A stretch of DNA of 64,000 nt from Aeromicrobium panaciterrae (GCF_031457275.1 NZ_JAVDWH010000001.1:434001-498000), one strand, 5' to 3'; counted from the first letter of the stretch, positions 22,286-58,603 are shown. The notes: a model not told the origin generated them from the sequence alone. Numbers and translations are program-made.

Positions 22286-23788
22286 TCAGTCGAGCGTGAG
22301 GCGCAGTGTCGCCTTGATGAGTTTGTCGTCGAAGGTGCTCGACACAGCGAACGCCGACAACGGCTCCAGCTCGTTGAGAACGTCCTCGACGTCTGGCGGC
22401 GGGTTCGACGCCAGCAGTGCTTCGAGGATCGTGTCGATGTTGACGAACATCGCTGGGAACGCGCCCGGGTGAGCGACAGCTTCCTTGAAGTTCTTGGAGT
22501 CGCCGAGCTTGCCGTTGCCGGAGAACGCCTCGGCGGCTTCCGGGTTGGTCGCAATGACCACTCCGTCGTCCGTCGGTGAGGCGACGAGCGAGAAGCCCAC
22601 GTCGGCAGCCAGGTCGACCAGGCGCTTGGCCAGATCCGCACCCTTGGTCGGGTCGGTCGTCAGCTTGAGTCCGATGTCGAGTTGGGCGACATCATCCGGA
22701 CCCGACAGCATCGGCAACGTCTCGAGATTGCGGCCACCGACAGCGAGCATGAGTCCGTCGCCGAGCAGAGTTTCGAGATCTTCGGGCAGCTTGAAACCGA
22801 ACTCCTCCTCAATGGCCTTGAGCTCCTCTTCGGCATCCACTCCATCGGCCGCGAAGCCGCTCATGAACCCCTTGTCGAACTGCTCCTTCGCCTGATCGCC
22901 GAATCCGGAGATGGCGAATGCAAGGGCGGTGTCTTCAGGCAGATCTGCGAGGTTCGTCGACTCGACGACGTCTGGCTTCTCGTCGAGGTGTGCGATCGAT
23001 GCGAGCTCGAGCGATGACGAGCTGGCTCGCAAGGTGACGGCGGCCGTGGAGGCACCGGCGAAGGCGTCCTCCACTTCTGCACCGAAGGCTTCTTCGATTG
23101 CGTCGCTCTTGCTGATGCCCTCGAGATCGGCCCATGCCGAGAAGACACCCTGCTCGCCGAGTTCGTCCGTGTCCTTGGAGAACGTGGTGTTGTCGGCAAG
23201 CGACTTCTTGCTGGCAGCCTTGCTCGCCGCAGCTGCATCGGCCTTGCGTGGCGTGACGAGTGCGTAGCCGTCAAGGAAGGCGATGCCGGTCTTGCTGTCA
23301 GGACCTCCGCAGTCGGCAAGTGCATTGATGCCGATTCGTGCCTTGTCCTCATCGCTGATCTGTACGGCGACGATCGGAGTCTCGAGTTCGGAGTCGTACG
23401 CGACGCCGATGCGATGGCCGATCCAGGGCTCGATGTCCTTGTCATAGTCGAGGTCGCACTCGGCGACGAGGTCCTCCAGCAGTGGCTTGCGGACGTCCTG
23501 GTTGACGTCCTTGATGCCGAGTTCCTTGGCGAGCTCGGGGAACTTGCGGATCAACCGCAGGATCGCGATCTTCTGGCTCGCCGAAGGGTCGGCGTCGATG
23601 CGTGCGTACGCGACGACCGTCGAGGGGAGTACGTCGTGCGGCTGGGCACCGCCGCCCGAAAGCTTCTGCCAGGCGAACGCGCCCACAGCGACCAGGCCGA
23701 GCACCATTCCGGCTGCCACGCCGAGGATGAGGAACCGCTTGCGGCTGCGCTTCGTGGGCTCGATGACGGCGGGGGTCTCTTCAGTCAT
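22286..23788 (-). CDS. DUF3352 domain-containing membrane-anchored protein
   Basis: A 500-residue protein with a basic cytoplasmic N-terminus, one membrane helix (about 19-42) and a long extracytoplasmic acidic domain matching DUF3352, whose members contain repeated beta-rich substrate-like folds. The early phrase VLPSTVVAYARIDADPSASQKIAILRLIRKFP and central LPEDTALAFAISGFGDQAKEQF are typical. Function is unknown. An AAGGACG site precedes the ATG at 23788, with TACGCT further upstream. It is divergent from the array of six secreted paralogues. Confidence 0.85.
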   Translation of the reverse strand: MTEETPAVIEPTKRSRKRFLILGVAAGMVLGLVAVGAFAWQKLSGGGAQPHDVLPSTVVAYARIDADPSASQKIAILRLIRKFPELAKELGIKDVNQDVRKPLLEDLVAECDLDYDKDIEPWIGHRIGVAYDSELETPIVAVQISDEDKARIGINALADCGGPDSKTGIAFLDGYALVTPRKADAAAASKAASKKSLADNTTFSKDTDELGEQGVFSAWADLEGISKSDAIEEAFGAEVEDAFAGASTAAVTLRASSSSLELASIAHLDEKPDVVESTNLADLPEDTALAFAISGFGDQAKEQFDKGFMSGFAADGVDAEEELKAIEEEFGFKLPEDLETLLGDGLMLAVGGRNLETLPMLSGPDDVAQLDIGLKLTTDPTKGADLAKRLVDLAADVGFSLVASPTDDGVVIATNPEAAEAFSGNGKLGDSKNFKEAVAHPGAFPAMFVNIDTILEALLASNPPPDVEDVLNELEPLSAFAVSSTFDDKLIKATLRLTLD

Positions 23789-23864
23789 GGGTCGTCCTTA
23801 GCTGGGAGAAATCCGAGCGTATCGAACCTGACGAGATGCCATTTGTTGTTTGAAAAGACGGTGG

Positions 23865-23878
23865 TAGGGATTTCCCTA
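23865..23878. promoter_or_regulatory. TAGGGA-TT-TCCCTA palindrome upstream of paralogue 1
   Basis: A perfect inverted repeat whose right end lies 40 nt before the -10 TACATT (23919-23924), a position suited to an activator. Equivalent sites are at 24820-24833 and 25779-25792. Confidence 0.5.
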
Positions 23879-23918
23879 GACTTCCCGACGAACGGCCCGA
23901 TCGGGTGTACAGGAGACC

Positions 23919-23949
23919 TACATTTGGCTGTCGCCGATGGTCGGTGACA
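23919..23949 (+). promoter_or_regulatory. -10 and 5'-terminal hairpin, paralogue 1
   Basis: TACATT (23919-23924) predicts transcription from about 23931. TGTCGCCGA (23929-23937) pairs with TCGGTGACA (23941-23949) around TGG, with one G.U pair. The stem ends 20 nt before the ATG at 23970. Confidence 0.6.
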
Positions 23950-23969
23950 ACTCGATCGAGGTGCAGATC

Positions 23970-24755
23970 ATGCGCAAATCCACCGCCATTCTCTCGGCCG
24001 CCGTCATGGCGCTGGCCACAGCAGTGAGCATGTCACCAGCGCAGGCCGCGTCCTACGACGTGAGTGCCTCCATCTCCACGAGTAGCGCGCAGTCCGGCGA
24101 TGGGCCATACATCAAGGGTTCGATTTCGCCTGCCCGCTCAAAGGCGATCAAGGTGCAGCGCTACATCGGTGGGAACTGGCAAAACATCAAGTCGGCCACG
24201 ACCAATGGTGACGGCAAGTACGGCACGCGCCTGAGCCCCGAATACTTGGATGGCGCCCTGGGCTCACTGAAGTTCCGCGTAGTTCTTGACTCGCCCAATA
24301 CAGGTAAGAGCGGCACCGTCACCAAGACGATTTACGGCTGGCGCCACCTCTCGGACATGACCGCGTCGTCGGGTGACTCGTTCCGTTTCTATGACGATGG
24401 CGTGCATCTCACAGTCGACGGACATGATGCAGATGACGGCTGGATCTCGGCCATCGACGGTGTGGCGTACACCAAGTGGAACCTGCAGGAGAAGTGCATC
24501 AAGCTCACAGGGTTCGCCGGCCTCGATGACTACACTTCCGACACCGCGTCCCTGGCCAAGCTCTACATCGGTCTAGATGGCACTTCGCACGACTACGACC
24601 GAACGTTTAGCCAATATGAGACCGCGACGCTGGACAAGTCTCTCTACAAGACGCACTACCTGACGTTCAAGGCAAAGCGAATCGAGATCGACGAGAATGC
24701 GCCCCTCGGAGTTGGCTACCCCAGGGTGCTCTGCAGCAAGGACCTCACTGATTGA
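23970..24755 (+). CDS. Secreted two-domain protein, tandem paralogue 1 of 6
   Basis: A 261-residue secreted protein of a family I do not recognise. Sec signal peptide 1-26 ending SPAQA. Domain 1 (about 28-115) looks like a bacterial Ig-like beta-sandwich: strand pattern IKGSISPA, then VQRYIGGNWQNI, then SLKFRVVL. Domain 2 (about 120-261) contains the family signature YTKWNLQEKC, GFAGLDD, LYIGLDGTSHDYDRTF and GVGYPRVLCSK. The mature chain has two cysteines only, likely one disulfide. Domain 2 resembles NPCBM-type carbohydrate-binding modules in its G-x-DD/DG layout. The start is the ATG after GAGGTG; an upstream in-frame GTG falls inside the leader hairpin. Confidence 0.88.
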   Translation: MRKSTAILSAAVMALATAVSMSPAQAASYDVSASISTSSAQSGDGPYIKGSISPARSKAIKVQRYIGGNWQNIKSATTNGDGKYGTRLSPEYLDGALGSLKFRVVLDSPNTGKSGTVTKTIYGWRHLSDMTASSGDSFRFYDDGVHLTVDGHDADDGWISAIDGVAYTKWNLQEKCIKLTGFAGLDDYTSDTASLAKLYIGLDGTSHDYDRTFSQYETATLDKSLYKTHYLTFKAKRIEIDENAPLGVGYPRVLCSKDLTD

Positions 24756-24767
24756 CCTGCACCGACG

Positions 24768-24798
24768 AGGGCCTGGCCGGCACCGCTGGCCGGGCCTT
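24768..24798 (+). terminator. Terminator-like hairpin after paralogue 1
   Basis: AGGGCCTGGCC pairs with GGCCGGGCCT (one bulge and one wobble) and is followed by TT. Confidence 0.55.
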
Positions 24799-24813
24799 CG
24801 TACGTGTAAAAGC

Positions 24814-24970
24814 CGGTGGTAGGGATTTCCCTAGACTTCCCGACGAACGGCCCGAGCGGGTGCACTGGCGACCTACATTTGGCTGTCGCCGATGGTCGGT
24901 GACAACCCGATCGAGGTGCAGATCATGCGCAAATCCACCGCCATTCTCTCGGCCGCCGTCATGGCGCTGG
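24814..24970 (+). repeat. Direct repeat copy 2 (promoter, leader and signal-peptide region of paralogue 2)
   Basis: Second copy of 23859-24015, offset by 955 nt with no gap. The palindrome TAGGGATTTCCCTA is at 24820-24833. Confidence 0.75.
24874..24904 (+). promoter_or_regulatory. -10 and 5'-terminal hairpin, paralogue 2
   Basis: TACATT (24874-24879), then hairpin TGTCGCCGA/TCGGTGACA at 24884-24904, identical to paralogue 1 and again 20 nt before the start codon. Confidence 0.6.
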
Positions 24971-25722
24971 CCACAGCCGTGACCATGTCACCGGCTGAAG
25001 CCGCCAGCTACGACGTGAGCGCGTCCATTTCCACGAGCAGCGCACAGTCCGGCGATGGTCCCTTCATCAAGGGCTCGATCTCTCCTGCTCACTCGGGCAA
25101 GACGGTGCTGTTGGAGCGGTACTACAGCGGCGCCTGGCACACGCTTGCCGACACGTCGACCAACAGCAGTGGAAGGTACGGCGTGCGCTTGTCGCCTGAC
25201 GACCTGGATTACAACCTAGGCTCGATGAAATTCCGCGCCAGGCTCTATACGCCCAATACCGGCAAGAGCAGCACCGTCACCAAGACGATCTACGGCTGGC
25301 GCCACCTCGCCTACATGACCGCGTCCTCGGGTGACTCGCTGCGCTTCTGGGATGGCGGCGGTGAACTCACGGTCGACGGTGTGTACACGGATGAGGGCTG
25401 GCACGCGGGGCACCTCGATGGCGAAGGCATTGGCTACACCAAGTGGAACCTGCAGGAGAAGTGCATCAGGCTCCAAGGGTTTGCCGGACTCGACGACGAT
25501 GGGTCCTCCACGGGCGCCATCGGCAAGCTCTACATCGGCCTCGATGGCACCTCGCACGACTACGACCGAACGTTTGACAAGTTCGAGTATGCGGAGCTCA
25601 ACAAGAGCCTCTACAAGACTCACTACATGACGTTCAAGTCGAAGCGACTCAACCTCGACGAGAACACCGTCGTCGGTGTCGGCTACCCGCGGGTGCTCTG
25701 CAGCAAAGACATGACTGATTGA
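24925..25722 (+). CDS. Secreted two-domain protein, tandem paralogue 2 of 6
   Basis: 265 residues, closest to paralogue 1. Signal peptide ends SPAEA. Domain 1 includes LERYYSGAWHTLADTSTN and GSMKFRARLY. Domain 2 has YTKWNLQEKC, GFAGLDDDG, LYIGLDGTSHDYDRTF and VGYPRVLCSK. Again the only cysteines are those in EKC and LCSK. It was probably duplicated together with its control region from copy 1. A strong terminator follows, so it forms its own transcription unit. Confidence 0.88.
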   Translation: MRKSTAILSAAVMALATAVTMSPAEAASYDVSASISTSSAQSGDGPFIKGSISPAHSGKTVLLERYYSGAWHTLADTSTNSSGRYGVRLSPDDLDYNLGSMKFRARLYTPNTGKSSTVTKTIYGWRHLAYMTASSGDSLRFWDGGGELTVDGVYTDEGWHAGHLDGEGIGYTKWNLQEKCIRLQGFAGLDDDGSSTGAIGKLYIGLDGTSHDYDRTFDKFEYAELNKSLYKTHYMTFKSKRLNLDENTVVGVGYPRVLCSKDMTD

Positions 25723-25733
25723 TCTGAACTGAC

Positions 25734-25766
25734 AAAGGCCCGGTCGACGACGTCGGCCGGGCCTTT
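25734..25766 (+). terminator. Intrinsic terminator after paralogue 2
   Basis: AAAGGCCCGG (25734-25743) pairs perfectly with CCGGGCCTTT (25757-25766). The right arm ends in TTT. Confidence 0.8.
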
Positions 25767-25778
25767 GCGCGGGCAGGG

Positions 25779-25792
25779 TAGGGAATTCCCTA
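25779..25792. promoter_or_regulatory. TAGGGAATTCCCTA palindrome upstream of paralogue 3
   Basis: A perfect 14-bp palindrome ending 39 nt before the -10 TACGTT, equivalent to those before paralogues 1 and 2. Confidence 0.5.
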
Positions 25793-25831
25793 GAGTTCTG
25801 GGCGAAAGCCCCAACCGGTGCTCGAGAGACC

Positions 25832-25864
25832 TACGTTGAAAATGTCGCCGATGGGCGGTGACAT
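25832..25864 (+). promoter_or_regulatory. -10 and 5'-terminal hairpin, paralogue 3
   Basis: TACGTT (25832-25837). ATGTCGCC (25842-25849) pairs with GGTGACAT (25857-25864) around GATGGGC. The outer pair is A-U here but G-C in paralogues 4-6. The stem ends 18 nt before the start codon. Confidence 0.6.
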
Positions 25865-25882
25865 TCGAGCGAGGTGCACACC

Positions 25883-26704
25883 GTGCGCAAGTTCACCGTC
25901 ATTCTGTCAGCCGCCGTCATGGCGCTGGCAACAGTCGTATCCATGTCGCCGGCCCAAGCCGCGAACTACCACGTGACCGCTTCCGTTTCCACGAGTAGCG
26001 CCCAGTCCGGCGAAGGGCCGGTCATCGCGGGTCAGTTGACGCCTGCCACGCCCGGCAAAGTGGTCCATCTGCAGTACTACTACAACGGCGACTGGCGCAC
26101 GGTGGAAACGACGTCTACCAACCCTGACGGGTCCTACACCGATCTCATCTCGTCTGATGATCTGGGCTACGCAGTGGGCGCCTTGAAGTTCCGTGCCAAG
26201 GTCGTCGGCGCGGACGGGATCGGGACCGGCGCCAGCCCTACCATCACCAAGACGATCTACGGCTGGCAGCGACTGGCGTACGTCACGGCTATCTATGGCA
26301 ACTCGCGACGCTACGTTGACGGTGAAGGAGATTTGACCGTGAACGGGCATTCGACTGCTTCGCAGGAGGGGTGGCAGATCACGAATCCGCTCGTCAACCA
26401 GATCAGCACTCGCTACACGAAGTGGAACCTGCAGGAGAAGTGCATCAGGCTGATCGGATTCGCTGGGATCGACGACTACGCCTCCGACGTTGGGGCTCAG
26501 GGCCGACTCCTCATCGGCCTGGATGGCACCTCGCACGATTACGACCGAACGTTCGACAAGAATGAGCTCGCGTACCTCGACAAGAACCTCTACAAGTCGA
26601 AGTACCTCACCTTCAAGGGATACAAGCTCAACAGTGCTGCGACTCGAATTGGGGTCGGCGACCCCAAGGTGCTGTGCAGCAAGGCTCTTCCCATGAGCAA
26701 CTGA
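25883..26704 (+). CDS. Secreted two-domain protein, tandem paralogue 3 of 6
   Basis: 273 residues from GTG at 25883, aligned with the ATG of the other copies; GAGGTG lies 7 nt upstream. Another in-frame GTG at 25874 would add three residues. Signal peptide ends SPAQA. Domain 1 has LQYYYNGDWRTVETTSTN; domain 2 has YTKWNLQEKC, GFAGIDDY, LLIGLDGTSHDYDRTF and GVGDPKVLCSK. The two-cysteine pattern is kept. An insert of about eight residues (HSTASQEG region) lengthens the loop before YTKWNLQEKC. Confidence 0.87.
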   Translation: MRKFTVILSAAVMALATVVSMSPAQAANYHVTASVSTSSAQSGEGPVIAGQLTPATPGKVVHLQYYYNGDWRTVETTSTNPDGSYTDLISSDDLGYAVGALKFRAKVVGADGIGTGASPTITKTIYGWQRLAYVTAIYGNSRRYVDGEGDLTVNGHSTASQEGWQITNPLVNQISTRYTKWNLQEKCIRLIGFAGIDDYASDVGAQGRLLIGLDGTSHDYDRTFDKNELAYLDKNLYKSKYLTFKGYKLNSAATRIGVGDPKVLCSKALPMSN

Positions 26705-26718
26705 TCTGCACCGACGAG

Positions 26719-26746
26719 GCCCGGTCGACCTGGTCGACCGGGCTTT
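26719..26746 (+). terminator. Intrinsic terminator after paralogue 3
   Basis: GCCCGGTCGACC (26719-26730) and GGTCGACCGGGC (26732-26743) pair perfectly, followed by TTT. Confidence 0.8.
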
Positions 26747-26781
26747 CGTCAGTTTTGCCTCGGATGCCCGCTTGAAAGCCC

Positions 26782-26813
26782 TAGATTTGGGTGTCGCCGA
26801 CAGGCGGTGACAC
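26782..26813 (+). promoter_or_regulatory. -10 and 5'-terminal hairpin, paralogue 4
   Basis: TAGATT (26782-26787). GTGTCGCC (26791-26798) pairs with GGTGACAC (26806-26813) around GACAGGC, 20 nt before the ATG. The TAGGGA palindrome of copies 1-3 is absent. Confidence 0.6.
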
Positions 26814-26833
26814 TCCCGGAGAGGGTGCAGTTC

Positions 26834-27646
26834 ATGCGCAGATCCACCGCGATCCTGTCGGCCGCCGTCGTGGCGCTGACCACGGCAATATCGATGTCGC
26901 CGGCGCACGCCGCCGCCTTCCACCTGACCGCGTCCATTTCCACGCCCAGTGCCCAGTGGGGTGACGGGCCGATCATGGACGGTCAGCTCACGCCCGTCTA
27001 TTCAGGCAGGACGGTCTATCTGCAGCGCTACTACAGCGACTCCTGGCACACCGTTGACACGACCTTGACCGATGACAGCGGGAATTACCACGAGCATCTG
27101 ACCCCCGACGAGCTGAAGCACAAGGTCGGGTCGATGAAGTTCCGGGCCAGGGTCCTTGGTCACGACGGATACACCGCGGACTCCAGCCCCACCGTTACGA
27201 AGACGATCTACGGCTGGCAGTCGCTCGCCCACATCGATGCGACGTACGGCGACTCGCGGCGCTTCGTCGATGGCGAAGATCAGTTGGTTGTGAACTTCCA
27301 GGTCGCGGACCGCTCATGGCAGGTCAAGAATCCGCTCGTCAACGAGGTCGGCAGACGATACACCAAGTGGAACCTGCAGGAGAAGTGCCTCCAACTGCGC
27401 GGATTCGCCGGCATCGACGACGACTCCAACGCGAGTGCCCAAGGGCGAGTTCTGATCGGAATCGACGGGACCGCGTACGACGACGTGTACTCGTTCAGCC
27501 CGCACGACTATCAACCACTCGACAAGAACCTCCACAAGACGAAGTACTTGACCTTCAAGGCGTACAAGCTCAACGAATATGCCACGACGGTCGGGGTCGG
27601 CGTTCCTGAAGTGAACTGCTCAAAGAAGCTTCCGACCAACTACTGA
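26834..27646 (+). CDS. Secreted two-domain protein, tandem paralogue 4 of 6
   Basis: 270 residues. Signal peptide ends SPAHA. Domain 1 carries LQRYYSDSWHTVDTTLTD and GSMKFRARVLG. Domain 2 has YTKWNLQEKC, GFAGIDDDS, VLIGIDGTAYDDVYSF and GVPEVNCSKKLP. This copy diverges most in the loop after IDGT (AYDDVYSF for SHDYDRTF) and has NCSK instead of LCSK, but both cysteines remain. The start is the ATG at 26834, in line with the other copies. Confidence 0.87.
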   Translation: MRRSTAILSAAVVALTTAISMSPAHAAAFHLTASISTPSAQWGDGPIMDGQLTPVYSGRTVYLQRYYSDSWHTVDTTLTDDSGNYHEHLTPDELKHKVGSMKFRARVLGHDGYTADSSPTVTKTIYGWQSLAHIDATYGDSRRFVDGEDQLVVNFQVADRSWQVKNPLVNEVGRRYTKWNLQEKCLQLRGFAGIDDDSNASAQGRVLIGIDGTAYDDVYSFSPHDYQPLDKNLHKTKYLTFKAYKLNEYATTVGVGVPEVNCSKKLPTNY

Positions 27647-27660
27647 GGTCTTCGTAGGTC

Positions 27661-27697
27661 TGTGGGCGTTCTTTCAGAATTTGTTCGAACGCCCACA
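27661..27697 (+). terminator. Perfect 11-bp hairpin between paralogues 4 and 5
   Basis: TGTGGGCGTTC (27661-27671) pairs with GAACGCCCACA (27687-27697) across a 15-nt loop. No T-run follows, and the right arm recurs upstream of paralogue 6 (from about 28651), so it may be a regulatory site as well as, or instead of, a terminator. Confidence 0.5.
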
Positions 27698-27716
27698 AGT
27701 TCGTGCTCGGGAGATT

Positions 27717-27748
27717 TACATTGGGGTGTCGCCGACTGGCGGCGACAC
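27717..27748 (+). promoter_or_regulatory. -10 and 5'-terminal hairpin, paralogue 5
   Basis: TACATT (27717-27722). GTGTCGCC (27726-27733) pairs with GGCGACAC (27741-27748) around GACTGGC. The fifth pair is G-C here instead of G.U in copies 1-4. The stem ends 19 nt before the ATG. Confidence 0.6.
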
Positions 27749-27767
27749 CCGATCGGGGGTGCAGTCA

Positions 27768-28583
27768 ATGCGCAAATCCACCGTGATCCTGTCGGCCGCC
27801 GTCATGGCGCTGGCCACAGCCATATCCATGTCGCCGGCCCAAGCCGCGGCATTCCAAGTGACAGCTTCGATCTCGACCAGCAGTGCTCAGTCCGGCGACG
27901 GGCCCATCATCACGGGTCAACTGACGCCGGCAGTGGTCCACAAGGTCTACCTGCAGCGCTACTACAGCGATGCGTGGCACAACGTTGCCACGACCTTTAC
28001 CAACGGCAGCGGTCAATACATCAGGCACGTGACTTCTTCGGAGCTCGGCTACAAGGTGGGTTCGTTGAAATTCCGCGCCAAGGTCCTTGCCGATGGTGGG
28101 CCGTACTCAGCAGACGGCAGCCCGTCAGTCACCAAGACGATCTACGGCTGGCAGTCGCTTGCCTACATGGATGCGATGTCCGGCGCCTCATATCGTTACG
28201 TCGACGGCAACGATGAGTTCGTCGCGGACGAGTACACCGCGGACGACTCGTGGCAGATCAAGAGTCCGAACATCGGTACCGTCGGCACTCGCTACACCAA
28301 GTGGAACCTGCAGGAGAAGTGCATCAGGTTCCAAGGCTTTGCGGGTATTGACGACGACGAGTCCGTTCCGGGAGCCGTGGGCCGATTCATCGTCAGCATC
28401 GATGGCACCTCGCACGACACCGCAGAGAACTACGGGCCGAACGTGGCCGATTTCTTCGACGTGCCGATCTACAAGACGCACTATTTGGCGCTCAAGGCGT
28501 ACAAGCTCAACGGCAATGCCACCGTGATCGGAGTTGGAGAGCCCGAAGTGCTCTGCTCGAAGAAACTTCCGGTGGACTTCTAG
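27768..28583 (+). CDS. Secreted two-domain protein, tandem paralogue 5 of 6
   Basis: 271 residues, closest to paralogue 6. Signal peptide ends SPAQA. Domain 1 has LQRYYSDAWHNVATTFTN and GSLKFRAKVL. Domain 2 has YTKWNLQEKC, GFAGIDDDE, FIVSIDGTSHDTAENY, then IYKTHYLALKAYKLNGNAT and GVGEPEVLCSKKLP. The family's two cysteines are kept. Upstream in-frame starts exist but would translate through the leader hairpin, so the ATG at 27768 is used. Confidence 0.88.
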   Translation: MRKSTVILSAAVMALATAISMSPAQAAAFQVTASISTSSAQSGDGPIITGQLTPAVVHKVYLQRYYSDAWHNVATTFTNGSGQYIRHVTSSELGYKVGSLKFRAKVLADGGPYSADGSPSVTKTIYGWQSLAYMDAMSGASYRYVDGNDEFVADEYTADDSWQIKSPNIGTVGTRYTKWNLQEKCIRFQGFAGIDDDESVPGAVGRFIVSIDGTSHDTAENYGPNVADFFDVPIYKTHYLALKAYKLNGNATVIGVGEPEVLCSKKLPVDF

Positions 28584-28594
28584 TCACCTGCGAG

Positions 28595-28624
28595 GGTCCG
28601 GCCAACATCGTTGGCCGGGCCTTT
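28595..28624 (+). terminator. Intrinsic terminator after paralogue 5
   Basis: GGTCCGGCCAAC pairs with GTTGGCCGGGCC (one wobble) around ATC, followed by TTT. Confidence 0.75.
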
Positions 28625-28688
28625 GCACGAGTGTTGGACGTGCGTTCAGAATTTGCTCGAACGCCCACAAGTTTGTGCTTGGGAGCCC

Positions 28689-28720
28689 TACATTTGAGTG
28701 TCGCCGACTGGCGGCGACAC
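28689..28720 (+). promoter_or_regulatory. -10 and 5'-terminal hairpin, paralogue 6
   Basis: TACATT (28689-28694). GTGTCGCC (28698-28705) pairs with GGCGACAC (28713-28720) around GACTGGC, as in paralogue 5 and again 19 nt before the ATG. The upstream GAACGCCCACAAG block (about 28658-28670) is shared with paralogue 5. Confidence 0.6.
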
Positions 28721-28739
28721 CCGAGCGGGGGTGCAAAGC

Positions 28740-29555
28740 ATGCGCAAATCCACCGTCATTCTGACGGCTGCCATCATGGCGCTGGCCACAGTCGTATCGA
28801 TGTCACCGGCCCAAGCCGCGGCCTACCAAGTCACCGCGTCGATCTCCACGGTCAGTGCGCAGTCTGGTGACGGTCCCTATTTCACCGGGGCGATCTCGCC
28901 CGGCACGCCTGGCAAGACGGTCTACCTGCAGCGCTACTACAGCGGCGGTTGGCACACCGAAGCGACGACGAGCACCGACAGCGATGGTGATTTCGCGGGC
29001 CTTGTGTCGTCGGAGGACTTGGGCTTCAAGGTGGGCTCGATGAAGTTCCGCGCCAAAGTCATTGGGTCGGGGTCGTACACCTCAGGCGCCAGTAGTTCGA
29101 TCACGAAGACGATCTACGGCTGGCAGTCGCTCGCCTATATGGATGCGATCTACGGCGACTCGCGACGCTATTTCGACGGGAATGATGAGTTCACCGTCGA
29201 CGAGACCACGGCGGACGACTCCTGGCAGATCAAGGATCCACAAGTCGGCGTGATCGGCACCCGCTACACCAAGTGGGACCTGCAGAAGAAGTGCATCAAG
29301 CTCCAAGGATTCGCGGGCATCGACGACTTTGACTCCGTTCCGGGAGCTGAGGGGCGATTCATCATCAGCATGGACGGCACTGCCCACGACACGGGTGAAA
29401 ACTACGTCCTGGGGGACATCCGGCACCTCGAGGAGCCTCTCTACAACACGCAGTACTTGGCGCTCAAGGCCTACAAGAACAACGGCAACGCCACCACGAT
29501 CGGTGTTGGCGAGCCCGAAGTGCTTTGCTCGAAGAAGCTCCCCGAGAATTTCTGA
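28740..29555 (+). CDS. Secreted two-domain protein, tandem paralogue 6 of 6
   Basis: 271 residues. Signal peptide ends SPAQA. Domain 1 has LQRYYSGGWHTEATTSTD and GSMKFRAKVIG. Domain 2 has YTKWDLQKKC (slightly diverged from NLQEKC), GFAGIDDFD, FIISMDGTAHDTGENY and GVGEPEVLCSKKLP. Both cysteines are kept. It is the last member; the next feature is the palindrome controlling the TetR/AtuA operon, which may also stop transcription from this gene. Confidence 0.88.
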   Translation: MRKSTVILTAAIMALATVVSMSPAQAAAYQVTASISTVSAQSGDGPYFTGAISPGTPGKTVYLQRYYSGGWHTEATTSTDSDGDFAGLVSSEDLGFKVGSMKFRAKVIGSGSYTSGASSSITKTIYGWQSLAYMDAIYGDSRRYFDGNDEFTVDETTADDSWQIKDPQVGVIGTRYTKWDLQKKCIKLQGFAGIDDFDSVPGAEGRFIISMDGTAHDTGENYVLGDIRHLEEPLYNTQYLALKAYKNNGNATTIGVGEPEVLCSKKLPENF

Positions 29556-29570
29556 GCACTGACTAGGGTC

Positions 29571-29619
29571 AATCCCACAAACAATCAGGCTTGACTGTTT
29601 GTGGGATTGGCCGCATGCT
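29571..29619 (+). promoter_or_regulatory. 38-bp palindrome and leaderless promoter of the TetR-AtuA operon
   Basis: Arms AATCCCACAAACA (29571-29583) and TGTTTGTGGGATT (29596-29608) are perfect 13-nt inverted repeats, with an inner TCA-GGCT-TGA. TTGACT (29591-29596) is 17 nt from CATGCT (29614-29619), which ends 6 nt before the GTG at 29626. A TetR dimer bound here would cover the -35 element. Confidence 0.75.
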
Positions 29620-39403: not shown

Positions 39404-39500
39404 CCGCCTTAGCGTGGTGTCCGCCACCTGAGAGCCGCCTGCGGAATAGATCACCCACCGCCTAGACTTATGAGTTCGACAAACGGCAAAAGGGGCTGGG

Positions 39501-41621
39501 GTGACGACACACAGCGCTGAGCACATTGCTCAGCAAGAAGTCGCTGCCGAGCAGGCCTACGTCGACAACGTCTACGAGCGGCTCGAAGCGTCGGGCCAGA
39601 TGGCTCAGGCGCTCGTCGCCGAGGGCTACGCACGCGGCCACATTGGGCACGAAGGTGGCCTCGTCGAGCGCGACGCCATGGTCTTCCAGGCGTCCAAGCG
39701 CATCGCTGCGCTCAATGCCGCCCATGACGGACTCGTGTTCGGTCGCCTCAACCTTCTCGATGGAGAGTCGCGCTACATCGGCCGCATCGGCGTACGCGAC
39801 GAGAACCGTGACGTCATCGTCGTCGACTGGCGCGCACCTGCCGCTGCCGTTTTCTATCAAGCCACCGCTCAGGACCCGGCCGGCGTCATTCGCCGTCGCG
39901 TGCTGCGTTGCTCGGGCGAAAAGGTCATCGGCGTTGAAGATGATCTGCTGGATGCCGAGAACGCTGCGGACGATCTGGTCATCGTCGGCGAAGGTGCACT
40001 CCTTGCCAGCCTGAGCCGCGCTCGCGACAGCTCGATGCACTCGGTCGTCGCCACGATCCAGAAGGAGCAGGACGAAGCGATCCGCGCTCCGAGCCGTGGC
40101 GCCACGACGATTGGTGGCGGCCCGGGCACGGGCAAGACCGTCGTCGCGCTGCACCGCGCTGCGTACCTGCTCTATACCGACCGCCGCCGATTCGAGTCCG
40201 GTGGCGTGCTCGTCGTTGGCCCGTCGTCAGTCTTCATGAACTACATCGAACGCGTCCTGCCGAGCCTCGGCGAGACCAGCGTGACGCTGCGATCGCTCGG
40301 TGAAGTTGTCGACGGTCTGCGCGCCGATCGTCACGACGAGCCGGTGGCTGCTGCCGCCAAGGGTTCCTCTCGTATGACTGCGTTCATCGGTCGAGCCGCC
40401 GCTGCGCCGCTGCCGGGAGCGCCGACCGAGTTCCGCTTCTTCTACAAGGACGACGTCCTACGCCTCGAGGCTTCCGATCTCGACCGCATCCGCCGCCACC
40501 TGCTGTCTGGCGGCAAGCGCAACCGCGCGTACGACAAGGCTCCCGCGGCTCTCGTTGACGCGCTGTGGCGCCAGGTCGCGGGTGAACGAGCACTGGAGAA
40601 GGGTGAAGCCGAGTTCGTCGAGATCGTGACGACCGACGACCGATTTGTCTCGTTCGTCGAGGACTGGTGGCCGCCGGTTGACCCGATCGAGGTCTGGCGC
40701 ACGCTGCCGGACGTCATCGACTCGCTCGGCCGCGGCGCATTCTCGGCCGAAGAACTGAAGGCACTCAAGGCGTCGTGGGCGATTGGCGAGCCCAGTATCG
40801 AGGACATCCCGCTGATCGATGAGCTCCGCTACGTCATTGGCGAAATCCCTGACACCAACGACAACGACGATGACGGCCCCAAGCAGCTGATGAGCTTTGA
40901 GCGCCAGGAGCGCGAAGCGCGCGATGACCGTTATCGCGCAACCCGCAGCATCGAGGACGACGGTTTCGCTCACGTGCTCGTTGACGAGGCGCAGGACCTG
41001 TCGCCGATGCAGTGGCGCATGCTCGGCCGCCGTGGCCGTCACGCGAGCTGGACGATCGTTGGCGACCAGGCGCAGTCGTCCTGGCCGCACCCGCGTGAGT
41101 CCGAAGCGGCTCGCAAGGCAGCGCTCGAGGGCAAGCCTGAGCACGCATTCCGGCTCTCGACCAACTACCGCAACTCGGCGGAGATCTACGATCTCGCCGC
41201 CAAGGTCGCCGTGATTGGCGTCAAGGACCCTGACCTGGCCGATGCAGTTCGCCGTACGGGAGATCTGCCCCAGCACCACGTCGTCAGTGCGTCTGAGCTC
41301 ACCGCACAGCTGCGTACGAGCATCGGCGACATCCTGGAGCGCGTTGAAGGCACGGTTGCCGTGGTGGCTTCGCGCGCCGACTTGGAGCGACTCGAGGGCG
41401 AGCTCGCAGACCTGATTGAGGAGAACTCGGGACGCTTGCGCCTCCTCGACGGACTCGACACCAAGGGTCTTGAGTTCGACGGAGTTGTCGTTGCCGAGCC
41501 CGACGCGATCACCGATGAGTCGACGGCCGGATGGCGCACCCTGTACGTCGTGCTGACTCGCGCCACGCAACTCCTCACGACGGTCGGCACGACCGACCGC
41601 TGGCGAGAGCGGATCGTCTGA
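39501..41621 (+). CDS. helD: UvrD/HelD-like superfamily 1 helicase (RNA polymerase recycling type)
   Basis: A 706-residue SF1 ATPase. An N-terminal coiled-coil segment (about 1-75) precedes split motor domains: Walker A GGPGTGKT at 206-213, DEXX box VLVDEAQDLSPMQ near 495, motif IV-like LSTNYRNS, and motif VI VLTRATQ. The N-terminal arm inserted before motif I, the long insertion between motifs, and the length match HelD, which frees stalled RNA polymerase and in some actinobacteria confers rifamycin tolerance. It starts with GTG at 39501; a TAGACT -10 lies about 45 nt upstream. I saw no rifamycin-associated element. Confidence 0.87.
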   Translation: MTTHSAEHIAQQEVAAEQAYVDNVYERLEASGQMAQALVAEGYARGHIGHEGGLVERDAMVFQASKRIAALNAAHDGLVFGRLNLLDGESRYIGRIGVRDENRDVIVVDWRAPAAAVFYQATAQDPAGVIRRRVLRCSGEKVIGVEDDLLDAENAADDLVIVGEGALLASLSRARDSSMHSVVATIQKEQDEAIRAPSRGATTIGGGPGTGKTVVALHRAAYLLYTDRRRFESGGVLVVGPSSVFMNYIERVLPSLGETSVTLRSLGEVVDGLRADRHDEPVAAAAKGSSRMTAFIGRAAAAPLPGAPTEFRFFYKDDVLRLEASDLDRIRRHLLSGGKRNRAYDKAPAALVDALWRQVAGERALEKGEAEFVEIVTTDDRFVSFVEDWWPPVDPIEVWRTLPDVIDSLGRGAFSAEELKALKASWAIGEPSIEDIPLIDELRYVIGEIPDTNDNDDDGPKQLMSFERQEREARDDRYRATRSIEDDGFAHVLVDEAQDLSPMQWRMLGRRGRHASWTIVGDQAQSSWPHPRESEAARKAALEGKPEHAFRLSTNYRNSAEIYDLAAKVAVIGVKDPDLADAVRRTGDLPQHHVVSASELTAQLRTSIGDILERVEGTVAVVASRADLERLEGELADLIEENSGRLRLLDGLDTKGLEFDGVVVAEPDAITDESTAGWRTLYVVLTRATQLLTTVGTTDRWRERIV

Positions 41622-57457: not shown

Positions 57458-58603
57458 ATGAGCTTGACCACGCCTGACACCTACATGGCTGACGATCCAG
57501 CGGGAGACTTCCCGATCGTTCAGCTCCTGACGCCCGAAGGCGAGCGCGTCAGCCACCCTGAGTTCGCTTATGACGGCGACGACGAGAGCATCCGCGAGCT
57601 CTACCGCGACCTCGTCCTCATGCGCCGCGTCGACTTTGAGGCACACGCGCTGCAGCGTCACGGCGAGATCGGACTATGGCCTCCGGCGCAGGGTCAGGAA
57701 GCCGCCCAGATCGGTTCGGGTCGCGCTCTTCGCAAGCAGGATTTTGCCTTTCCGACCTATCGCGAGCACGGAGTTGCGCTGTGCCGCGGAGTCGAACCGG
57801 GCAAGCTCGTCGGACTCTTCCGAGGTACTGAGCTCGGCGGCTGGGACCCCAACGAGCACGGCATCGCGCTGTACAGCATCGTGATCGGCGCGCAGACCCT
57901 CCACGCGACGGGCTACGCGATGGGCCTGACCCTCGATGGAGCAGTCGGCCACAACGATCCTGACCGCGACGCCGCGGTCATCGCCTACTTCGGCGATGGT
58001 GCAACCAGCCAGGGCAGTGTCAACGAGGCATTCGACTGGGCGGCGGTCTTCAATGCTCCCGTCGTGTTCTTCTGCCAGAACAACCAGTACGCGATCTCGG
58101 CGTCCACAGATCGACAGACTCGTGGTCCGATCGCCCAGCGCGCTGGCGGCTTCGGCTTCCGGGGAATGCGCGTTGACGGCAACGATGTCCTCGCATGCCA
58201 TGCAGTGACCAAGGCGGCTTTGCAGAAGGCGCGCGATGGTGAGGGTCCGACCCTGATCGAGGCATACACCTATCGCATGGGCGCGCACACGACGTCCGAC
58301 GACCCGACCCGCTACCGCGAGACTGCCGAAGTCGAGACCTGGAAGCTCAAGGACCCGATCGAGCGCGTGAAGCGTTACCTGCAGGTGCAGGGCACGCCGC
58401 AGGAGTTCTTCGATGCCCTCGATGCTGAGGCCGAAGTGCTGGGCAAGAACCTGCGCGAGGCGTGCAAGGCGCTGCCGGAGCCCGATCTTGAGGCGCTGTT
58501 CAGCATGGTTTACGTCGATGGCGAGACGCCTGAGCTGCTTGAACAGAAGGCGGCGTACGTCGCGTTCAGAGATGGCCTCGAGACAGAAGGGACACCCGCA
58601 TGA
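57458..58603 (+). CDS. pdhA: 2-oxoacid dehydrogenase E1 component, alpha subunit (branched-chain or pyruvate)
   Basis: A 381-residue thiamine-diphosphate-dependent E1 alpha. The ThDP motif GDGATSQGSVNEAFDWAAVFNAPVVFFCQNN and the LWPPAQGQEAAQIGSG and YRMGAHTTSDDPTRYR patterns are intact. The three-gene E1a-E1b-E2 layout and the E2 sequence resemble the mycobacterial BkdABC branched-chain enzyme, so leucine/valine/isoleucine-derived 2-oxoacids are at least as likely as pyruvate. The ATG at 57458 follows GAGGGAGACGC. No E3 gene is in the cluster. Confidence 0.9.
   Translation: MSLTTPDTYMADDPAGDFPIVQLLTPEGERVSHPEFAYDGDDESIRELYRDLVLMRRVDFEAHALQRHGEIGLWPPAQGQEAAQIGSGRALRKQDFAFPTYREHGVALCRGVEPGKLVGLFRGTELGGWDPNEHGIALYSIVIGAQTLHATGYAMGLTLDGAVGHNDPDRDAAVIAYFGDGATSQGSVNEAFDWAAVFNAPVVFFCQNNQYAISASTDRQTRGPIAQRAGGFGFRGMRVDGNDVLACHAVTKAALQKARDGEGPTLIEAYTYRMGAHTTSDDPTRYRETAEVETWKLKDPIERVKRYLQVQGTPQEFFDALDAEAEVLGKNLREACKALPEPDLEALFSMVYVDGETPELLEQKAAYVAFRDGLETEGTPA

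What the first reader, a model, noticed from the sequence alone, without database searches (positions are those of the whole stretch)
23859..29608. Six tandem paralogues of an unrecognised secreted two-domain family, each with its own promoter
Six consecutive genes of about 260-275 codons share a signal peptide, an Ig-like N-terminal domain and a C-terminal domain with the YTKWNLQEKC, GFAGxDD, xIGLDGT and VLCSK signatures. Each copy has its own -10 and leader hairpin, and most are followed by a terminator-like hairpin, so they are separate cassettes rather than an operon. Amplified families of exported binding-like proteins with graded divergence suggest diversification for ligand binding, competition or surface variation. 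I know no named system like this.
Basis: partly seen in the sequence, partly recalled or inferred. Interest (0 to 1): 0.82.

Follow-up and report, generated by a model that had tools for sequence, protein, structure and literature searches.

The report
Six tandem secreted lectin-like genes
An Aeromicrobium bacterium carries six neighbouring copies of a gene for a small exported protein made of an immunoglobulin-like stalk and a sugar-binding-type (CBM51) head, a recognisable family that related species also multiply, but whose sugar and purpose are unknown.

Summary
Six consecutive genes (23970-29555) encode 261-273 aa proteins with a Sec/SPI-type signal peptide and two domains. A 21-nt leader hairpin is found at these six places only in the 2.82 Mb genome, and a strong hairpin follows each gene. 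The family is recognisable: AlphaFold models of a window copy and of an Aeromicrobium homologue both give an Ig-like domain plus a CBM51/NPCBM domain (best PDB match CBM51 2vmi, Z 15.5 and 17.7). Two congener homologues pass Pfam's NPCBM cut-off; the window copies score just below it. The six form one clade (100/100) whose branching follows map order: stepwise local duplication. Copies are under purifying selection (dN/dS 0.32-0.49), not positive selection. Related genes occur across Aeromicrobium and other Nocardioidaceae, often in tandem (another six, at least five, many pairs), and cluster at two chromosomal addresses about 16 kb apart. Most likely these are secreted, enzyme-free, lectin-like proteins whose CBM51 head binds a surface or environmental glycan and whose Ig domain is a spacer. 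Ligand, role and diversification for binding are untested. Verdict: a new variant of a known kind, moderate interest.

The parts
23919..23924 (+). -10-like TACATT, copy 1 (copies 2-6: 24874-24879, 25832-25837 TACGTT, 26782-26787 TAGATT, 27717-27722, 28689-28694)
   Evidence: sequence and alignment; not supported by promoter scan
23929..23949 (+). leader hairpin, copy 1
23970..24755 (+). copy 1: signal peptide, Ig-like domain, CBM51/NPCBM-like domain (261 aa); PF08305 E 4e-4
24763..24803 (+). terminator-like hairpin after copy 1
   Evidence: z -5.5
24884..24904 (+). leader hairpin, copy 2
24925..25722 (+). copy 2 (265 aa), same architecture
25733..25767 (+). terminator-like hairpin after copy 2
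   Evidence: z -5.7
25843..25863 (+). leader hairpin, copy 3
25883..26704 (+). copy 3 (273 aa, GTG start), same architecture
26713..26750 (+). terminator hairpin after copy 3, with T tract
   Evidence: z -5.6; consensus scan
26792..26812 (+). leader hairpin, copy 4
26834..27646 (+). copy 4 (270 aa), same architecture
27660..27700 (+). hairpin after copy 4, overlapping the upstream region of copy 5
   Evidence: z -3.5
27727..27747 (+). leader hairpin, copy 5
27768..28583 (+). copy 5 (271 aa); PF08305 E 3e-4
28585..28630 (+). terminator-like hairpin after copy 5
   Evidence: z -6.9
28699..28719 (+). leader hairpin, copy 6
28740..29555 (+). copy 6 (271 aa); modelled: residues 26-126 Ig-like, 126-262 CBM51 fold
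29567..29612 (+). hairpin after copy 6
   Evidence: z -6.6
22286..23788 (-). flanking DUF3352 gene; in four congeners a single family gene lies on its other side
39404..39557 (.). empty second address of the family: congeners carry 1-6 family genes at this junction (enoyl-CoA hydratase | helicase)

Best explanation
Each gene makes a small protein that is exported by the Sec route (signal peptide shown by sequence; export inferred), cut after AxA, and released or loosely held at the surface because no anchor is present (sequence). The mature protein is an Ig-like domain, probably a spacer (inferred), joined to a CBM51/NPCBM-fold domain (shown by model and by profile matches) closed by two invariant cysteines, probably a disulfide (inferred). 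The CBM51 head binds a glycan on the cell's own envelope, on neighbours, or on plant or soil polymers (inferred from the fold family). It carries no enzyme, so it works as a lectin or coat protein, not as part of a glycosidase. The six copies arose by stepwise local duplication at one address in a family that repeatedly gains and loses copies at two fixed sites. Each copy is kept under purifying selection with its own leader and terminator-like hairpin, so the copies give either dosage or a small set of related binding specificities.
For: AlphaFold model of copy 6, pLDDT 82: residues 126-262 match CBM51 2vmi (Z 15.5, 2.2 A over 127 residues) and about ten other entries with CBM51 modules, well above unrelated rows; residues 26-126 match bacterial Ig-like domains such as 4kdv (Z 8.4, 26% identity). 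A homologue from Aeromicrobium sp. Root344 gives the same, Z 17.7. PF08305 hits in 9 of 14 family members, two above Pfam's cut-off (26.6 and 24.8 bits against 23.9). The six copies are one clade, 100/100, ladder ((1,2),(3,(4,(5,6)))) matching map order. dN/dS is 0.32-0.49. Two addresses. Tandem sets elsewhere. [quoted passage not shown]
Against: No ligand evidence: sugar-binding residues of CBM51 could not be mapped (no coordinates to hand), and NPCBM domains are also proposed to sense non-sugar invader molecules (PMC8195603). The window copies themselves stay below Pfam's cut-off (at most 21.3 bits). Structure matches have 10-12% sequence identity for the window copy. No carbohydrate enzyme or transporter was recognised beside the array.
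Confidence: 0.55

Rival explanations
1. Structural or adhesive coat proteins: the CBM51 fold is used for protein or envelope contact, with no sugar-binding pocket left, and copy number sets the amount of coat.
For: No enzyme domain, no anchor; the signal-peptide segment is unusually conserved at silent sites (pS 0.31 against 0.53, 2 of 10000 random codon sets as low), as for genes selected for output; paralogues under purifying selection.
Against: Dosage alone does not explain divergence to 47% identity, nor orthologous pairs kept apart across species elsewhere in the genus.
Confidence: 0.2
2. Diversifying recognition set: copies bind different glycans of competitors, phages or hosts and are selected to differ.
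For: The most variable stretches lie mainly between strands of both domains, for example alignment columns 221-235 with 25% mean identity and dN/dS up to 0.85; copy number varies strongly between species.
Against: No region exceeds dN/dS 1; no recombination cassette, reverse transcriptase or switching device was seen in the neighbourhood; no PADLOC match.
Confidence: 0.17
3. Secreted antibacterial or other effector proteins whose CBM51 head targets and whose remaining part acts.
For: Small, exported, amplified, species-variable.
Against: Both domains have non-catalytic folds with no extra region, and no immunity-like partner gene sits beside each copy.
Confidence: 0.04
4. Neutral leftover of tandem duplication with no selected role for most copies.
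For: Tandem duplication is common in the family.
Against: Six intact frames, dN/dS well below 1 at dS near 0.7-1.2, retained leader and terminator hairpins.
Confidence: 0.04

Closest known systems
CBM51 / NPCBM (PF08305) modules of Clostridium perfringens GH95, GH98 and ZmpB and Streptococcus pneumoniae GH98
   Same: Same beta-sandwich fold over the whole C-terminal domain (Z 14-17.7); weak to above-threshold Pfam profile matches in the family.
   Different: Those are parts of large enzymes; here the module stands alone behind an Ig-like domain in a 261-273 aa secreted protein, has two invariant cysteines and only about 10-17% identity.
Bacterial Ig-like domains (Big_3_5; extender domains of ice-binding adhesins, 4kdv, 4p99)
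   Same: Fold of the N-terminal domain (Z about 8, 26% identity); one congener matches Big_3_5 at 7e-5.
   Different: Single domain, not a long repeat stalk.
Homologues in other Aeromicrobium and Nocardioidaceae (e.g. Aeromicrobium sp. Root344, A. ginsengisoli, sp. 9AM)
   Same: Same signal peptide, Ig-like and CBM51 order, same cysteines, often tandem, often at the same two addresses.
   Different: About 35% identity or less to the window copies; none of those inspected shares the 21-nt leader hairpin.
Actinobacterial NPCBM immune-sensor proteins (eLife 2021, PMC8195603)
   Same: NPCBM domain in actinobacteria.
   Different: Those are described as invader sensors fused to Death-like, TIR or kinase domains; these are exported and fused to an Ig-like domain only.

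Membership tests
CBM51 / NPCBM (PF08305) | CBM51 beta-sandwich fold | tested here: met
   Z 15.5 (window copy 6) and 17.7 (Root344 homologue) to 2vmi, 2.2 A over 127-129 residues
CBM51 / NPCBM (PF08305) | Pfam gathering score 23.9 bits by the window proteins themselves | tested here: not met
   best 21.3 bits (copy 5), 20.8 (copy 1), 15.9 (copy 6), none in copies 2-4; two congener homologues do pass (26.6, 24.8 bits), so the link is through the family
CBM51 / NPCBM (PF08305) | binding of galactose, blood-group or GlcNAc-type glycan | not testable with these tools
   needs protein; literature: PMC3267712
CBM51 / NPCBM (PF08305) | module attached to a carbohydrate-active enzyme or peptidase (strict CBM definition) | tested here: not met
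   261-273 aa proteins hold only signal peptide, Ig-like and CBM51-fold domains; no catalytic Pfam match
Bacterial Ig-like domain | Ig-like fold | tested here: met
   residues 26-126, Z 8-10 to several Ig/FN3-type domains
Bacterial Ig-like domain | Pfam Ig-like profile in window copies | tested here: not met
   no Big_* match in copies 1-6; one congener at 7e-5, below cut-off
Known anti-phage defence systems | match to a PADLOC model | tested here: not met
   no match for two copies and two flanking genes
Described RNA families (leader) | Rfam match of the leader hairpin | tested here: not met
   no leader match even at E 5

The most novel reading that the evidence does not exclude
A birth-and-death repertoire of free-standing secreted lectins: Nocardioidaceae keep tandem arrays of Ig-CBM51 proteins at fixed chromosomal addresses, each paralogue recognising a different glycan, giving each species its own set of surface or environmental glycan readers.
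Probability: 0.22. Interest if true: 0.6.

Novelty: new variant of a known kind. Interest (0 to 1): 0.36.

Why it matters
CBM51 heads are known as parts of glycan-cutting enzymes. Here the head stands in small exported proteins without an enzyme, multiplied in tandem, and gained or lost at fixed sites across a genus. If they bind sugars, they are an unstudied set of actinobacterial lectins that would be easy to produce and test, and a natural series of paralogues for asking how CBM51 specificity changes.

Tried and rejected
Rfam on the array: no leader family. The leader as a genome-wide regulatory element: rejected, only the six places match well (my first pattern had one base too many and is void). 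Leader shared by homologues: not seen in 17 relatives. Positive selection: not found. PDB by sequence: nothing useful. Plasmid or phage carriage: no match. PHROGs: only weak, uninformative hits. NCBIfam: none. PADLOC: none. First genome-contig scan with the window copies found no named relative; the second, with a congener group, gave three Aeromicrobium records. One Pfam query (L057) was given in the wrong frame and was repeated correctly.

Full report
Observation. The window lies at 434001-498000 of a 2,818,240-base, one-contig genome. Six intact genes on the + strand run from 23970 to 29555. Protein identity between copies is 47-71%. Each copy carries, in the same order, a -10-like hexamer, a 21-nt inverted repeat, a GAGGTG/GGGGGTG-type ribosome site, the gene, and a strong hairpin. 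The 21-nt element occurs well matched at these six places only in the genome. Downstream hairpins have z of -3.5 to -6.9 and leader hairpins -1.6 to -2.7. Only one downstream hairpin has a T tract by the consensus scan and no usable -35 was found, so separate transcription is likely but unproven. G+C over the array is about 60-62% against mostly 63-68% around it.

What the proteins are. The AlphaFold model of copy 6 on a ten-sequence alignment has mean pLDDT 82 and pTM 0.72. VIA-align places residues 126-262 on CBM51 structures: 2vmi Z 15.5, 2.2 A over 127 residues; 2vnr, 2vng, 7jrl, 7js4, 2ygl and others 13-15.4. Residues 26-126 match Ig-like domains, among them 4kdv from an ice-binding adhesin with 26% identity. 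The second model, of an Aeromicrobium sp. Root344 homologue, repeats this with Z 17.7. By sequence, PF08305 (NPCBM) is hit by copies 1, 5 and 6 below the cut-off, by 9 of 14 family members, and above the cut-off by two congener homologues. The two cysteines that bracket the sandwich are invariant in 13 of 13 aligned members, probably a disulfide (inferred).

Distribution. In the genus, 35 of 49 genomes have a match to the family profile at 1e-6, though many of these are Ig-only matches in larger proteins. Full Ig-CBM51 genes occur in Aeromicrobium and in other genera of its family and class. Two-gene tandems are common; one congener (G447) has six in a row plus three elsewhere and another (G022) has at least five, cut by a contig end. 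In a sample of 296 genomes of the phylum the CBM51 half finds only three others, all in larger open frames; one (G558) reads as cell-wall-binding-type repeats followed by two NPCBM-like copies (repeat identity by eye). Contig lengths and names identify G026, G021 and G024 as Aeromicrobium sp. Root344, A. ginsengisoli and sp. 9AM, so the window is an Aeromicrobium.

Evolution. In a 50-sequence tree the six copies are one clade (100/100) with the order ((1,2),(3,(4,(5,6)))), i.e. neighbours on the map are sisters: stepwise local duplication within this lineage. In other species the members of tandem pairs are orthologous between species (G003, G443, G033, G447; G230, G190), so those pairs are old and kept apart. 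Overall dN/dS is 0.32-0.49; pooled sliding values peak at 0.85. Silent differences are fewer in the signal-peptide segment (0.31 against 0.53; 2 of 10,000 random codon sets as low), which fits constraint on the mRNA 5' end or gene conversion; the data do not separate them.

Place. The flanking gene order (lipase, DUF3352, TetR, MDMPI, AtuA, acyl-CoA dehydrogenase, carboxylase) is kept across the genus. The window's array sits between DUF3352 and TetR. In G026, G022 and G027 that gap is about 200 bp, and about 400-450 bp in G447, without an array; in others it holds a PepSY lipoprotein, a sortase with a surface-type protein, or a 2055-aa open frame. In G035, G012, G029 and G447 one family gene sits on the other side of DUF3352, where the window has about 10 bp. 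About 16 kb away, between an enoyl-CoA hydratase and a helicase gene, G447 has six copies, G443, G003, G033 and probably G012 two, G029 one (G005 one beside the hydratase); in the window this junction is about 100-150 bp and empty. The family thus turns over in copy number at fixed addresses; I saw no mobile element beside the array.

Mechanism. Shown: intact genes, signal peptide, two-domain fold (by model), single-lineage duplication, purifying selection, separate hairpins. Inferred: export, disulfide, spacer role of the Ig domain, glycan binding by the CBM51 head, separate transcripts. [quoted passage not shown] I favour secreted lectin-like or coat proteins, with ligand unknown.

Filing. 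It works like a CBM51 and belongs by fold and by family profile to the NPCBM group, but it is not a CBM in the strict sense because no enzyme is attached, the window copies miss the Pfam cut-off, and binding is untested. I rate it a new variant of a known kind: free-standing, tandemly amplified Ig-CBM51 proteins.

Noticed in passing
window 39404-39557; L166, L169, L188-L190, L192: A second fixed address for the same family, next to a leucine/isovalerate-type catabolic block, holds 1-6 family genes in congeners and is empty in the window species.
   Followed up: partly
L161 4741-6982 (DUF3352-TetR gap of Aeromicrobium sp. 9AM): At the position of the window's array this species has a PKD/Ig-like secreted protein, a sortase (PF04203, 1.7e-20) and a PepSY lipoprotein: the gap is a variable site for surface proteins.
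   Followed up: partly
L163 398-6565 (G035): A 2055-aa ORF fills the same gap in another congener; not analysed.
   Followed up: no
L194 7-1908 (G558, same phylum): Protein that looks like three cell-wall-binding-type repeats followed by two near-identical NPCBM-like domains.
   Followed up: no
window 23970-24050 and the same segment of each copy: Silent-site divergence is about 40% lower in the signal-peptide codons than in the rest of the genes; constraint or gene conversion.
   Followed up: partly
window 57776-57862: ARAGORN reports one tRNA-like gene with an odd four-base anticodon (cagt) inside a coding region; probably spurious.
   Followed up: no
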